A stretch of DNA of 41,505 nucleotides from Candidatus Eisenbacteria bacterium (lineage in GTDB: Bacteria > Eisenbacteria > RBG-16-71-46 > CAIMUX01 > JAHJDP01): assembly GCA_018831195.1 (NCBI GenBank), contig JAHJDP010000004.1:117776-159280 (forward strand), read 5' to 3'. The notes beneath the pieces were generated by a model. The model saw only the letters and a program-made list of their open reading frames with translations. It had not been told where the DNA came from and did no database searches. Every line of letters begins with the position of its first letter. Within the stretch, counting starts at the first letter, position 1. Below, piece by piece: positions 19,589-29,000 of this stretch. Position numbers and translations under genes: made by a program.

Positions 19589-19618
19589 TTGACGCGGTTT
19601 TCTACCGATGACTATACT
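19589..19618 (+). promoter_or_regulatory. Candidate promoter for the YbbR gene
   Basis: TTGACG (19589-19594), 18-bp spacer, TATACT (19613-19618), in the 121-bp gap upstream of the YbbR gene. The hexamers are near consensus. Transcription would start about 55 bases before the ATG at 19679. Confidence 0.6.
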
Positions 19619-19678: not shown

Positions 19679-20617
19679 ATGCTGGGTGGGATTCGAAGGC
19701 TGGTTTTACAAAACATCGGGTTGAAATTTACCTCACTCGTCCTGGCGATTGCGTTCTACCTCCATGTCTTCTCCATACAGGTCCAAGAGTTCTCGATGTC
19801 AATCCCGCTCCGGCTGACGGATATACCCAGCGAAATGACCTTGACGGGAGAGATTCCAGCCACCGTTGAGATCATGGTTCAGGGATCGGGAAAGGAACTC
19901 CTAAAGCTCCGCGCCCGCCGGTTGTGGACTCAAATCAGCGTGGCCGACGCGGGGGAGGGAAGGTTCCAGCGCCCTATCGTCGCCGGCGACATAAGCCTGC
20001 CCCCGGATATTGAGGCCCAGACGGTGGAGGTCATCCGTCCGAAAGTGCTGGACCTTGTCTTTGACCGGCTGGAGGAAAAGCGAGTGCCGGTCTTTCCCAC
20101 CATCACCGGCGCCCCCTCATCCGGTTTCTTGGTCAACGGCCCGGTGCAGGTTGAGCCGGATTCGGTGACCCTGCGGGGTCCCCGCAGGCTTCTCGACCGG
20201 TGCGAGTTTTCCAGAACCCTGGATCTGGGAATTCAGGGAGCGACCGGTCCGCTGCGGGCAGAGGTCCAGCTCGGCACGCCGGGTGGCGTGATCGCTGATC
20301 CCCCCAAGGTGATGGTTGTCGTTCCGATCGAACGTTTGATAGTCCGCTCGATTCAGGGATTGCCCATCGAGGTTTTAAGGAGCAGTTCTATTCGTCATGT
20401 TCAATTAGAGCCGGAGACGGGTAGCGTTGAGGTGCTGGGGCCCGAGAGCGTCGTCGCTCGGTTGCGGCCCGAGGATCTCGTATTGAGGATCGATGCCCGG
20501 AACTTGAGAGCGGGGACCCACATGCTCATGGTCAGTGTGGTTCTAACGCGTGATGTTGAGGATCTGGTTTCGGTCGAACCGAGTTACCCGGAAAGATTTA
20601 AAGTCACACTTGAATAA
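19679..20617 (+). CDS. YbbR-domain protein (CdaR-like)
   Basis: 312 residues. An N-terminal 'NIGLKFTSLVLAIAFYLHVF' is the typical YbbR membrane anchor, followed by repeats of the YbbR beta-fold: 'VQEFSMSIPLRLTDIPSEM', 'VEIMVQGSGKELLKL', 'VPVFPTITGAPSSGFLVNG', 'VEPDSVTLRGPRRLLD' and 'IEVLRSSSIRHVQLEPE'. In Firmicutes, the YbbR protein CdaR modulates the diadenylate cyclase CdaA, encoded just upstream. Here no cyclase gene is adjacent; the upstream neighbour is the beta-barrel-like gene. Its role in c-di-AMP control is therefore inference. No strong ribosome binding site precedes the ATG. Confidence 0.86.
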   Translation: MLGGIRRLVLQNIGLKFTSLVLAIAFYLHVFSIQVQEFSMSIPLRLTDIPSEMTLTGEIPATVEIMVQGSGKELLKLRARRLWTQISVADAGEGRFQRPIVAGDISLPPDIEAQTVEVIRPKVLDLVFDRLEEKRVPVFPTITGAPSSGFLVNGPVQVEPDSVTLRGPRRLLDRCEFSRTLDLGIQGATGPLRAEVQLGTPGGVIADPPKVMVVVPIERLIVRSIQGLPIEVLRSSSIRHVQLEPETGSVEVLGPESVVARLRPEDLVLRIDARNLRAGTHMLMVSVVLTRDVEDLVSVEPSYPERFKVTLE

Positions 20618-23545: not shown

Positions 23546-24374
23546 TCGCATGCGGCAGATACTTGAAGATGTCCAATCGGGCGTGATGACGGCTGATGCT
23601 GCGATGAGCGCCTTCCGACGGCTCCCCTTTGAGTCGCTGAACGACCTGCGATTGGATCATCATCGGCATCTTCGCTGCGGTTTTCCGGAAGTTGTTTTTG
23701 GACTGGGCAAAACGCCGACCCAGGTGCTGGATGCGGCCAAGGGTCTTCAGGCATCCGGCAGTCCTCTTCTCGTCACCCGTGTTGATCCAGAGACAGGACC
23801 TCTTCTGCAGAAGCAGTTTCCAGCAGGGCGCTGGAATCGCCGCGCCCGCTGCTTCATTTTGGCCGGTGAGTCTCTCATTCCCCCGGCCGGTCTTGTAGGC
23901 ATCTTGTGCGCCGGGACGAGTGACCTCCCTGTTGCGGAGGAGGCTGTTGAAACGGCCCGCGCCATGGGAGCCGAGGTGGAGTTTACGGCCGATGTGGGGA
24001 TTGCCGGGCTCCATCGTCTCAGCGATAAAAAGGAGCTCCTCCTATCGGCGGATGCCCTCGTTGTTGTCGCGGGCATGGAAGGGGCTCTGGCGAGTGTCGT
24101 GGGAGGACTTACCGACAAGCCCGTGATCGCGGTTCCGACCAGCGTCGGCTACGGCGCATCCTTCAAAGGTCTAACCGCCTTGTTGGCCATGCTCAACAGC
24201 TGCGCTTCCGGGGTTGTCGTCGTCAATATCGACAATGGTTTCGGCGCGGGTTACACCGCTGCCCTGATTGGACGGGGTCGATGCGCCGCAATGAAGGATG
24301 TCCGTCTTCCGGAGAAGCAACTGAGGAAACAACCGGAGAAGCCGCCGAAGAAACGACCGGGGAAAGAACAATGA
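23535..24374 (+). CDS. larB: LarB: pyridinium-3,5-biscarboxylate mononucleotide synthase
   Basis: 279 residues from ATG at 23535 (GGGAGG 8 bases upstream). LarB carboxylates and hydrolyses nicotinate adenine dinucleotide in the first step of nickel-pincer cofactor synthesis. The protein shows an N-terminal helical region, then 'GFPEVVFGLGKTPTQVL' and the PurE-like core 'VGILCAGTSDLPVAEEAVETA', 'ADVGIAGLHRL', 'VVVAGMEGALASVVGGLTDKP', 'VIAVPTSVGYGASF', 'LLAMLNSCASGVVVVNIDNG' and 'GFGAGYTAALI'. These are family hallmarks. The C-terminal ~20 residues are a Lys/Pro-rich tail encoded by short near-repeats. It overlaps larC by 4 bases. Confidence 0.94.
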   Translation: MHPDRMRQILEDVQSGVMTADAAMSAFRRLPFESLNDLRLDHHRHLRCGFPEVVFGLGKTPTQVLDAAKGLQASGSPLLVTRVDPETGPLLQKQFPAGRWNRRARCFILAGESLIPPAGLVGILCAGTSDLPVAEEAVETARAMGAEVEFTADVGIAGLHRLSDKKELLLSADALVVVAGMEGALASVVGGLTDKPVIAVPTSVGYGASFKGLTALLAMLNSCASGVVVVNIDNGFGAGYTAALIGRGRCAAMKDVRLPEKQLRKQPEKPPKKRPGKEQ

Positions 24375-25588
24375 GGATTTTATACGTTGATCCGATAGGG
24401 GGACTGAGCGGGGACATGTTTCTCGGCGCCCTCGTCGACTTGGGCTGGCCCCTGGCCTCGTTGGAAAGGGAGCTCCAGGAGATCGGAATTTCGGACATCC
24501 GATTGGATGTGGAGACGCGGATCCATCGACATCTTTCCTCGAAGGGGATTCTTGTGACCACCGGTGAAAAAGGAGTTCACCGACACTTGCCGGACATTGA
24601 GAAGATTCTTGGAGTCGATCGAACGGAGATGGATGCGATCCCGCCGCACCGTCGGAAGGCCTATGGGGCGTTCCGCCGCCTGGTTGAGGCGGAAGCCCGC
24701 ATCCACGGACAACCGATCGAGAAAGTCCATCTTCATGAGGTGGGAGGTTTGGATTCCATCGCCGATATCCTGGGCGTCTGTCTCGCTATCTCTGATCTTG
24801 AAATCGAGCGGGTCTTTGTTGGACCCCTGCCTTTGGGGACGGGATGGGTCGATATGGCGCATGGGCGATTTCCAATCCCCGCCCCGGCCACCGTTGAGAT
24901 CCTGAAGGATGTTCCGGTTGTCTGGACCGGTGAATGCGGGGAGAAGGTGACCCCGACAGGAGCGGTCTTGGCGGTAACCCTCGCTGATCAATTCGGATTT
25001 CCTCCACCGATGATCCTTCGGTCGACCGGTTGGGGTGGCGGCAGCCGCCCTACGGCGGAGGGTGAAACTCCCAATCTCGTCCGGCTCATCCTTGGGGAGA
25101 CCGAGGACGAAGCGGTGAATGAAGCGGGTGAGGGTCTCTGGGACCGAGTCGGCGTCCTAACGACACATATCGATGACATGACATCAGAAGAGATGGCTTA
25201 TCTCACTGAAAAATTAAGGATTGGGGGGGCGCTCGATGTTTTTGTCACACCGGGATTGATGAAAAAGGGACGGCCGGCCTGGGCTTTAACCGTGCTTTGC
25301 GGGCCCGCCATGATGCCCTCTCTTCGCACCCTCCTCTTCGAAGAGTCATCCACATTGGGGATTCGGATCCGGTGGGAGGAGCGTTGGGTGCTGAATCGCC
25401 TCTTGGAGACCTTGGAAACGCCCTATGGGCCCATCCAGGTCAAATGGGCGCGCCGGGGGGAGCGATGGGAGGCGGCGCCCGAGTTCGAATCCCTGAAATC
25501 AGCCGCCGACTCCTGCGGGATCTCTTTGAGAAAAATCGCTTTGGAGATCTCACGACTCCTGCCTGAGGTGCCAAAAACCTCCTTTTAG
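24371..25588 (+). CDS. larC: LarC: nickel-insertion enzyme for the nickel-pincer cofactor
   Basis: 405 residues from the ATG at 24371 (overlaps the larB stop; the longer reading is spurious). Family marks: 'YVDPIGGLSGDMFLGALVDLG', cited in part, 'VHLHEVGGLDSIADILGVCLA', 'GPLPLGTGWVDMAHGRFPIP', 'APATVEILKDVPV', 'KVTPTGAVLAVTLADQFG', 'STGWGGGSRP' and 'THIDDMTSEEMAYLTEKL'. LarC inserts nickel with CTP use. In lactobacilli it is made by frameshifting between two ORFs; here it is one continuous frame. LarE and the racemase LarA are not in the window. The stop is followed by the long non-coding gap. Confidence 0.95.
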   Translation: MRILYVDPIGGLSGDMFLGALVDLGWPLASLERELQEIGISDIRLDVETRIHRHLSSKGILVTTGEKGVHRHLPDIEKILGVDRTEMDAIPPHRRKAYGAFRRLVEAEARIHGQPIEKVHLHEVGGLDSIADILGVCLAISDLEIERVFVGPLPLGTGWVDMAHGRFPIPAPATVEILKDVPVVWTGECGEKVTPTGAVLAVTLADQFGFPPPMILRSTGWGGGSRPTAEGETPNLVRLILGETEDEAVNEAGEGLWDRVGVLTTHIDDMTSEEMAYLTEKLRIGGALDVFVTPGLMKKGRPAWALTVLCGPAMMPSLRTLLFEESSTLGIRIRWEERWVLNRLLETLETPYGPIQVKWARRGERWEAAPEFESLKSAADSCGISLRKIALEISRLLPEVPKTSF

Positions 25589-25614: not shown

Positions 25615-25643
25615 TTGACGACAGTACCAGCCGCGGCTATACT
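25615..25643 (+). promoter_or_regulatory. Near-consensus promoter
   Basis: TTGACG (25615-25620), 17-bp spacer, TATACT (25638-25643). This is among the best promoter matches in the window. The predicted start near 25650 leaves about 410 bases of leader before the secreted protein, or a short RNA of about 185 bases ending at the hairpin at 25806-25835. Confidence 0.72.
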
Positions 25644-25649
25644 CCTGAC

Positions 25650-25835
25650 AGCGTGTAGTAAGGGTAGTTATCCCATAACATGCCACGTCTGGACTCCCCC
25701 CTCTGACGAGACGTGCAGCTTGGGGATTGCATCAATTGGTGGAGGATCGAACTCGTCAAAGAATTCTCCTTCTCCGTTTTGCGGTGAAGTTGTACGCCGA
25801 CTAGTATCCGGTGGGTATTTGTATACCGGATTTTT
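25650..25835 (+). ncRNA. Candidate structured RNA or attenuating leader
   Basis: The stretch runs from just after a strong promoter to a terminator-like hairpin. Stem 1 is CACGTCT (25684-25690) with AGACGTG (25709-25715). Its loop carries TCCCC (25695-25699), able to pair with GGGGA (25722-25726), giving an H-type pseudoknot with loops of 4, 9 and 6 bases. I could not match it to 6S, tmRNA, SRP, RNase P or a riboswitch I know. It could be a small RNA or the first part of a leader controlling the following gene. Conservation is untested. Confidence 0.35.
25806..25835 (+). terminator. Terminator-like hairpin inside the leader
   Basis: ATCCGGT (25806-25812) pairs with ACCGGAT (25825-25831), directly followed by a T run (25831-25835). 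The 12-base loop contains a competing stem (GGTAT 25814-25818 with ATACC 25823-25827), so two mutually exclusive folds are possible. Confidence 0.5.
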
Positions 25836-25840
25836 CAGAG

Positions 25841-25880
25841 GGGCTCCCTGATCGAGGAGGTGATGGGAGTCAGGGAGTTC
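25841..25880 (+). repeat. Inverted repeat in the leader
   Basis: CTCCCTGA (25844-25851) and TCAGGGAG (25870-25877) form a perfect 8-bp stem, extendable by two G-U pairs and one G-C pair. The loop contains GAGGAGG and an ATG (25863) opening a 27-codon ORF to 25946, but the spacing between them is only 2 bases. Confidence 0.4.
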
Positions 25881-26060
25881 GCGGGCAGTATCGGAAATAT
25901 GTTAAAGTCTTGCACCGTCCAGGGGTTGACCCGGGACAGGTTTTGATGGTGCAACCGGCGTCGGCGGTGTCATCCCCGATGCCGGGGGGAGAGAGGGGAT
26001 CTCAGAACTGGCAGAATGAGATTCTCTCTGATCACGAGAAGGACAACCATGGAGGCAAAA

Positions 26061-29000
26061 ATGAGGAAGAGCTTCTTAATCCTGGCCTGCTTGTGTCTTT
26101 TGGCGGTCACGGTGAATGCTCATGCGGTAACACCTCGCAGCGATATGTTCCTTCGGACCTCGAAGGCTGCTGTGAATGAGTCGCTGAGCGATGCGCCGAA
26201 GGTGACCTATGCAGGCACACGGGCTGATACATTCTGCTATGGCGGCCATGATGGTAGTGGCTATGCCGTTCTTGGTGGAATCTGGGATTTCGCCGATGGC
26301 ACCATGCAGGGTTGGTACAGTCTTGACCAAACATTGAATTCCGGCGCGACTTGGTGGGCTCGCTATGACGCCGACGACTACGAGTACCCGGCCGCCGCTC
26401 CGATGACCAATGCGTCGGCCGGACACCTTTGGTGTGGTGGGGAGAAATCCCGTGCTATGGAAGGGTGTTGGGCTTGTGATGCCGGCGTTGAAAATGAAAG
26501 CTATGGCTATATTGCCAATTTGTGCCAGAGAACCACGGGTGAGCTTTTGGCGCTTGGCGCTGGTGATATCTCCATTGGCATGCAGTACTACACCGACTCC
26601 GAAGGCGGTGTTTTTGACTACTCAAAGGTTCAGCTTGTCTGCTACGATGGCGCCAATGAGCTAGAAGTTCTTACCGTCGACAATCTCGATGCCGGTATTG
26701 AGGGTGCGCCCGGCGCTCCGATCACCTATGCGGGCCAAATCTTCGGATTCGAGCTTCCTGATGGCACCGATGGCGTGCGGTTGCGCTTTGAGTTCGTTGC
26801 CGACGGCGGCTGGTCTGATGATGATGGGCTGTACTGTTCCACATACGGTCCCATCGGTCTCGACAATGTGGTTCTCAGCGGCGCCGTCTCGGCGTCGTAT
26901 AACTTTGAGAATGACGATGAAGGTTTTGTTGCCGCGCATTGTCCCGGGATCGGTAACTGGGTCGCCGTTAACCACGTCGACAATTATACCATCCTTGATC
27001 CCTGTGCTTGCGAGTTGAGCAACTATGTTCTCTCGTTCCACGATGACAACCTCGAGCATGGTGATCCGTCCAGTGCTCAGAACCAGAACAATATAGCGAT
27101 AAGCCCGATTGTTGATCGCACGGCTTATCCGTCCCCTGCCTACAACTCAATCTTCGCTCAGTGGGACATGTATGCCTGGCTGCCGAAGGCCAACGGTGTC
27201 CTTTATCGTCCGGGCTGGTTCTATGATCCTTGGGAATGTGAATTCACGGGCGCCACAGGTTGGTCCCCGCGTGTCGGGCAGGCCACATGGCACTATGTTG
27301 GAACCGATCCTGTTTGTTACGGTTCCAACAACTCCGCCACCAGCAACGAAGTTCCGGGCACGGCAAACTACTATCGCTTCTGTCTTGAAGTGCTGGCTTG
27401 CTGTGACTGCTTCGGCATCACGAATTGCACCGGTACCAGCAATGAAACCCCGCTGTTTGACAACATCGAGGTGTGCGTGACCGGCGTTGCCGATGCTCCT
27501 GTGGCGGGTTACGGCCCTGCAGATGGCAACTATTATCAGGATGCCTTCAGCCAGAGCATGTTCCTTGATCCGAGCGCAACCGGCCGTTGCGATTCCTGGG
27601 ATGTTGGCGGCGGCGCTGCGCCTCCGTATATTCTAGCCGACTCCCTGGCGATCACCGGCCCCGCGGTTACGGGTCCCACTCCGTCTTGGGAAGCCTACCT
27701 ATGGGTTCATGTCCCGCGTGTCGGCCCTGGGATCGATACGGGCGCTTTTGCTGCTTGGAAATCACGATTCACGGGCGATGCGGAGACGGGTTTCGTTAAG
27801 GCGAGAATGGACTCGAGTGAGACCGTCGCGGCCTTCTCGAACAAGTTCTGCTCCTACTTCAACGAATTAGACGGCGGGTTCAACAATGCGTTCGGCGAAT
27901 TGACCGAAGAGAACGAGATTCTCCCGGATGATTTGTTCACGCCGGGTACCCTGATTCAGTACTTCGTAACCACAAACTATGTTGGGAATCCGGAATTCGC
28001 CTTCTTGGAAGACACCACCAATGGCTTCTTCCGTGACATCGAGTTCCTTCCCAGCATGCGCAATGACTCAAAGTCGCGCTCGATTGTTTGGCCTTGCGTT
28101 CTTTACGTCGATGCCTACAACCGCGGCGCCGAAAACTTCATTCAGCCGGCACTTGACTACTTCCTGCAAGAAGTTCCGGGTGTTGGACCGAATAATGACC
28201 GCTACGATGAGAACGGAGCTTCCTCGAACTACAATGCGAGCTCCTTCTATCGGAACGGTAACAACGGGGCGACGTTGCCTCAGCTGTTGGGCTACAGCTG
28301 TATCCTCGTCAACTCCGGCGCTCTCAGCGATGCAGCCTTGGATGAGACAGACGTCATCGGTCTCGAAGACTGGTTGCTGACCTCGATCTGCGATTTCAAC
28401 AATGAGCGCCAGGGATTGATCCTGAACGGTGATGAGATGCCTGCTGTCATCCAGTTGAATCGTCCCTCCTTCCTGTTCGGCGCCCTCGGTGCCGGGCTGG
28501 ACTGCACACCTTACCGTGATGCCGGCTGCCCGAGTGGTTCCGAGGAGGACACGACCTATTGCGTTCAGATCATCGACGTTGACACGCCGGTCTTCCCGAC
28601 CTCGACCGATATCTGGGCCTATGGCAACGGATGTCCGAACATCTTTACTTACTCCGTTATGTTCCCGCAGGGCACGGGTCTTGGGAACCGCAGCTGGTTC
28701 GACTATGACTTCAGTGGCCCCAAAGGCGTCGTAGAGTTCGCTCAGATCGTCAATGAAGATCTCGGATTGGGTAACTATCGCTCCTCGATCGAGGGCTATA
28801 GCTATCACCACATCACGACCTCCTTCAACGGGACGACAGGACAGTGCGTCGCCGATAGTGCTGGTATCGTCAGCGCGGCAGCCTCTGAGATCGTTAACAC
28901 CCTCGACTGGATGTTCAACGGTCCTCCGCCGTCATTCTGCACCAATCCGTGCACTATCACAGATGACGTTCCGGACATCGGTGGTGTTGATGTGCGTGTG

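What the first reader, a model, noticed from the sequence alone, without database searches (positions are those of the whole stretch)
25615..25835. Promoter-to-terminator unit with a possible RNA pseudoknot and no protein
A TTGACG-17-TATACT promoter is followed, 163 bp later, by a T-tailed hairpin. In between, a 7-bp stem (25684-25690/25709-25715) has a C-rich loop able to pair with GGGGA at 25722-25726. No ORF has a credible start. This could be a ~185-base small RNA or an attenuator for the 1070-residue secreted protein. I do not recognise it as a known RNA class. The stems are seen directly; the function is inference, and a 5-bp second stem could be chance.
Basis: partly seen in the sequence, partly recalled or inferred. 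Interest (0 to 1): 0.62.

Follow-up and report, generated by a model that had tools for sequence, protein, structure and literature searches.

The report
Conserved long mRNA leader in Eisenbacteria
The promoter and folded RNA are the first half of a roughly 410-base untranslated leader of a large secreted-protein gene, kept at the same place across a poorly known bacterial class, and it carries a conserved, unusually strong ribosome-binding sequence about 200 bases too early to start translation.

Summary
The promoter is confirmed and is conserved in every relative that has the locus. The 7-bp stem and the T-tailed hairpin exist. The local pseudoknot (GGGGA 25722-25726) and the terminator are not conserved in relatives. 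Conservation continues past 25835, so the unit is best read as the 5' part of a ~410-nt leader (about 25650-26060) of the 1070-aa secreted protein, not a 185-nt sRNA. The order larC - promoter - leader - secreted-protein orthologue recurs across Candidatus Eisenbacteria. The outstanding feature lies just outside the reported interval: AGGAGGTGAT at 25855-25864, a near full-length complement of the 16S rRNA 3' end, ~206 nt before the start codon. 11 of 13 leaders from six families carry it at -196 to -234, always stronger than the real ribosome-binding site. One related family has a distinct, strongly covarying leader RNA (18 of 32 pairs with double changes) absent from Rfam. I propose a ribosome-docking leader, similar in layout to cry3A STAB-SD. 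The defining RNase J of STAB-SD was not found in any of 47 genomes of the class, so it is not filed there. Whether the own-species hairpin attenuates transcription is open.

The parts
25615..25643 (+). sigma-70-type promoter, TTGACG-17-TATACT; transcription start inferred near 25650
   Evidence: the same promoter lies 4-117 nt after larC in the order relatives and opens all 13 comparable leaders
25650..26060 (+). about 410-nt 5' leader of the secreted-protein mRNA
   Evidence: conserved order larC-promoter-leader-orthologue; leader folds better than shuffles
25684..25715 (+). 7-bp stem with C6 in the loop; C-runs recur here in relatives but the stems are not significant as a set
25722..25726 (+). 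GGGGA, proposed pseudoknot partner; not conserved
25806..25835 (+). T-tailed hairpin, possible species-specific attenuator
25855..25864 (+). AGGAGGTGAT, remote complement of the 16S rRNA 3' end, about 206 nt before the start codon; only exact copy in the window
26051..26055 (+). GGAGG, the actual ribosome-binding site
   Evidence: conserved ATGGAGGC just before the start codon
26061..29273 (+). 1070-aa secreted protein with FlgD-like C-terminal domain
24368..25588 (+). larC, nickel insertion protein, upstream syntenic neighbour

Best explanation
The reported unit is the 5' part of a long, conserved, untranslated leader of a secreted FlgD-tail protein mRNA. Shown: the promoter, the class-wide gene order, and a remote complement of the 16S 3' end at about -206 that does not look like a start site. 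Inferred: a 30S subunit docks on that remote element, which either keeps ribosomes near the real start site (standby) or protects the long mRNA from 5'-dependent decay, so that the secreted protein can be made in quantity. In this species only, the T-tailed hairpin 20 nt upstream of the element may additionally stop part of the transcripts early and leave a ~185-nt short RNA.
For: Gene order larC - TTGACA/TATACT - 400-500 nt - orthologue in nine order genomes including this one, with downstream proteins 28-53% identical over their length; a tenth order genome, Bin_233, has promoter, leader and orthologue, but its contig starts too near to show larC. In families f5 and f6 larC and the orthologue share a contig. 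The remote element has a duplex energy of -18.3 to -20.6 kcal/mol with the 16S tail in 11 of 13 leaders, at -196 to -234, against -9.3 to -13.1 at the real site; each is matched by at most 1.5% of shuffled leaders. The 16S tail GGATCACCTCCTT was confirmed in this genome. Only 7 sites this strong lie on both strands of 279 kb, about 0.5% expected for one leader. The AUG that overlaps the element is missing in f5, f6 and f9 and the following reading frames are not conserved, so it does not look like a start site.
Against: No transcript or ribosome data. The two f3 leaders lack a strong element (-11.8 and -14.1). RNase J, the nuclease in the STAB-SD model, was not found in any of 47 genomes. In this species the predicted fold pairs part of the element. 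The order leaders apart from this one fold no better than shuffles.
Confidence: 0.5

Rival explanations
1. Independent small RNA of about 185 nt, ending at the hairpin 25806-25835, acting in trans.
For: Promoter plus T-tailed hairpin; such a hairpin in 2% of shuffled leaders; the genome uses intrinsic terminators.
Against: Terminator absent from the relatives; conserved elements continue to the start codon; 192-nt unit not unusually stable.
Confidence: 0.15
2. Transcription attenuator: the hairpin 25806-25835 is a conditional terminator of the secreted-protein gene in this species, possibly linked to the competing long-range helix CCCCTCTGA 25698-25706 / TCAGAGGGG 25835-25843.
For: 9-bp perfect long-range complement that the full-length fold uses; hairpin above chance.
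Against: C-run to downstream pairing is not better than shuffles in relatives and only p 0.067 here; the long helix can form only after the terminator is transcribed, so it cannot prevent termination; not conserved.
Confidence: 0.2
3. Translated upstream ORF: the remote element is a normal ribosome-binding site for a short leader peptide.
For: Strong 16S complement directly before ATG 25863 in this species and in most order genomes.
Against: Spacing of about 2 nt; no ATG there in f5, f6 and f9; frames of very different length without common sequence.
Confidence: 0.12
4. Metabolite-sensing riboswitch or protein-bound leader with SD masking, as the f10 leaders suggest.
For: f10 leaders are strongly covarying multi-helix RNAs with invariant loops, single copy before a secreted-protein gene.
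Against: The f10 model does not match this leader; found before one gene family only, which is unusual for a metabolite switch.
Confidence: 0.2

Closest known systems
STAB-SD 5' mRNA stabiliser of Bacillus thuringiensis cry3A (PMC4113751, PMC13001229)
   Same: Long leader with a distal start site (-558 there, about -410 here), a Shine-Dalgarno-like sequence far from the start codon that does not start translation and can pair with 16S rRNA.
   Different: RNase J1, the exonuclease it blocks, was not detected in this class; position about -206 instead of near -129; stability and processed 5' end not measured.
Ribosome standby sites in structured 5' UTRs (PMC3936740, abstract seen)
   Same: Upstream place where 30S can bind before reaching a start site in a long structured leader.
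   Different: Here the site is a strong 16S complement about 200 nt away, conserved in position; accessibility and effect on translation not measured.
Long leaders of S-layer or other major surface-protein genes (own knowledge, not tested)
   Same: Long leader before a large secreted-protein gene.
   Different: No sequence relation tested; abundance and surface location of this protein unknown.

Membership tests
STAB-SD 5' stabiliser | SD-like sequence far upstream, complementary to the 16S 3' end | tested here: met
STAB-SD 5' stabiliser | does not direct translation initiation | tested here: inconclusive
   ATG not conserved at the element and no conserved peptide; no ribosome data
STAB-SD 5' stabiliser | bound 30S blocks RNase J1 | tested here: not met
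   TIGR00649 found in 0 of 47 genomes of the class, in 10 of 14 control genomes
STAB-SD 5' stabiliser | processed stable mRNA 5' end at the element | not testable with these tools
   needs 5' end mapping
6S RNA | match to Rfam RF00013 | tested here: not met
   6S of this genome is on contig C28; no match here
Any Rfam family | score at or above gathering threshold | tested here: not met
   best permissive hits are chance-level
f10 leader RNA (this work, model R1) | match to the covariance model | tested here: not met
   no match in this genome
H-type pseudoknot as proposed | second helix conserved or covarying | tested here: not met
   partner GGGGA not conserved
Intrinsic terminator | GC-rich hairpin followed by T-run, function in termination | tested here: inconclusive
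   hairpin of 7 bp or more and T5, 2% of shuffles, such hairpins used in this genome; not conserved

The most novel reading that the evidence does not exclude
A class-wide family of long leader RNAs in Candidatus Eisenbacteria controls a secreted FlgD-tail protein through a fixed, remote 30S-docking site that works without RNase J, and in one family has become an elaborate covarying RNA with invariant loops: an RNase J-independent ribosome-docking leader not described before.
Probability: 0.3. Interest if true: 0.7.

Novelty: new variant of a known kind. Interest (0 to 1): 0.5.

Why it matters
Remote Shine-Dalgarno sequences that do not start translation are known mainly from Gram-positive bacteria with RNase J. 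A positionally conserved one in an uncultured class without detectable RNase J would ask what a docked ribosome does for an mRNA when that exonuclease is missing. The related f10 leader is a new candidate structured RNA with strong covariation, which gives a concrete target for structure and ligand tests.

Tried and rejected
6S RNA: found elsewhere in the genome. Rfam classes: none. tRNA/tmRNA: none in the window. DNA-level homologues of the unit in the class: only the own copy; the other hits are short chance-level matches. First genome-contig scan with the LarC protein gave nothing. f10 covariance model on order genomes: no convincing match. C-run hairpin as a covarying element of the order: tempting by eye, but not significant in a free-search test. 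C-run pairing to a downstream G-run: not significant. Own-genome paralogues of the secreted protein (C92, C42, C119; 63-71% identical) have leaders that do not align with this one. A G008 hit to the f10 leader (L087) has no such leader around it and was set aside.

Full report
Observation. The promoter TTGACG-17-TATACT (25615-25643), the 7-bp stem 25684-25690/25709-25715 with a C6 loop, GGGGA 25722-25726 and the T-tailed hairpin 25806-25835 are all in the sequence as described. Taken alone they are weak: the 5.5 kb around them has about the number of promoter-like and terminator-like sites expected by chance, and the 192-nt unit folds no better than shuffles (z -0.93). Rfam gives nothing at gathering score, and only chance-level hits in a permissive scan.

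Context. The unit lies between larC (24368-25588, Pfam Ni_insertion) and a 1070-aa secreted protein starting at 26061 with an FlgD-like C-terminal domain. DNA searches of 47 genomes of the class found no other copy, but following larC did: in eight relatives of the same order the stop codon of larC is followed within 4-117 nt by a TTGACA/TATACT-type promoter, then 400-500 nt without a conserved ORF, then an orthologue of the secreted protein (protein alignment A1). A ninth relative (Bin_233, L102) has promoter, leader and orthologue on a contig that starts too near to show larC. Named contigs show that these are Candidatus Eisenbacteria. The intervening sequence diverges too much for BLAST, yet short blocks recur in order: a C-run about 45-70 nt after the start site, GGGGAGGAGGTGATG or a variant about 200 nt before the start codon, and ATGGAGGC or ACGGAGGC just before it. 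Conservation therefore runs through 25835 to 26060, and the unit is the 5' part of a leader of about 410 nt. The full leader of this species folds better than shuffles (z -2.98; -3.2); those of the other order genomes do not.

What fails. The pseudoknot partner GGGGA aligns with GGAGT, GGCGT, GGCAT and GGAGC. Stems around the C-run can be drawn in every relative, but a free search with shuffled flanks gives 86/1000 for the set, so I do not claim covariation there. Pairing of the C-run with downstream G-runs is no better than shuffles. The T-tailed hairpin is above chance here (6/300 shuffles) and this genome uses such terminators (13 of 195 gene ends against 2 shuffled and 0 mid-gene), but apart from a weaker hairpin at another place in G008 none of the 12 other larC-type leaders has one. 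It may be a species-specific attenuator.

The remote element. AGGAGGTGAT at 25855-25864 is the only exact copy in the window and complements the 16S tail GGATCACCTCCTT, which is present in this genome. Scanning 13 leaders from seven families (f1-f6 and f9, counting Bin_233 with f4) with the 16S tail, the best upstream site lies at -196 to -234 in 11 of them, from six families, with duplex energies of -18.3 to -20.6 kcal/mol, while the real ribosome-binding site has -9.3 to -13.1; each is reached by at most 1.5% of shuffled leaders. The two f3 leaders are exceptions (-11.8, -14.1). In 279 kb of this genome only seven sites this strong exist on both strands. An ATG overlaps the element in most order genomes, but the spacing is about 2 nt, it is missing in f5, f6 and f9, and no peptide is conserved.

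The f10 family. In this family of the same class, leaders between larC, or one further gene, and a secreted protein are alignable. The 146-nt core has 32 consensus pairs, 18 with changes on both sides; covariation score 0.470 against 0.215 in shuffles (0 of 500) and at most 0.178 in slid versions. It has a hairpin with a near-invariant 11-nt loop GAACTGCCTAA on a covarying stem. A covariance model finds it with E below 1e-6 in 14 genomes, all f10, and in none of the others among 290. It has no Rfam match at gathering score. It does not match this leader. The f5 leader L189 links the two types by eye: a C-run hairpin, AAAGGAGGTGG at -201, GGAAAGGAGGGAT at -148 and the f10-like site GCGACGGCGGAGGTAGC. 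Common descent of all these leaders is likely from position and motifs, but not proven by a model.

Mechanism. The layout resembles cry3A STAB-SD: a distal start site, a remote SD that does not start translation, a bound 30S subunit that blocks RNase J1 (PMC4113751; PMC13001229). RNase J (TIGR00649) was found in 0 of 47 genomes of the class against 10 of 14 control genomes, so the defining nuclease is not met and I do not file it there. A docked 30S could still act as a standby reservoir (compare PMC3936740, abstract seen) or protect against another 5'-dependent decay route. Docking is inference; order of likelihood: docking or standby leader, then attenuator or protein- or ligand-controlled leader, then free sRNA, then leader peptide.

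Limits. No transcript data, no genome of the same family, all comparisons across families; the RNase J result rests on one profile; several relatives are incomplete metagenome bins; the transcription start is inferred from the promoter.

Noticed in passing
L074-L086 (f10 leaders; core aligned in A2): New candidate structured leader RNA in family f10 of Eisenbacteria, 18 of 32 pairs with double changes, loop GAACTGCCTAA and a GCAG loop that could pair with its CUGC; no Rfam match.
   Followed up: partly
whole class: RNase J (TIGR00649) not detected in any of 47 Eisenbacteria genomes, although it is found in 10 of 14 control genomes.
   Followed up: partly
G000 contigs C92, C42, C119 (L163-L165): Three paralogues of the secreted protein (63-71% identical) with different leaders; C92 has a long leader with a C7 run, C42 a short one in which CAATCTC can pair either locally or with the GAGATTG at the start site.
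   Followed up: partly
L092 (G009:C48:8155-8198): Paralogue with the 5' and 3' ends of the leader kept but about 350-400 nt of the middle missing; the sequence held ends there, so an assembly effect is possible.
   Followed up: no
L098, L107, L096 upstream of start: Paralogues in G002 and G007 have a C6 run about 75-95 nt before the start and a GGGAGGG or GGAGGG ribosome-binding site that could pair with it.
   Followed up: no
19589-19618: A second TTGACG-18-TATACT promoter, before a YbbR-domain gene (19679-20617).
   Followed up: no
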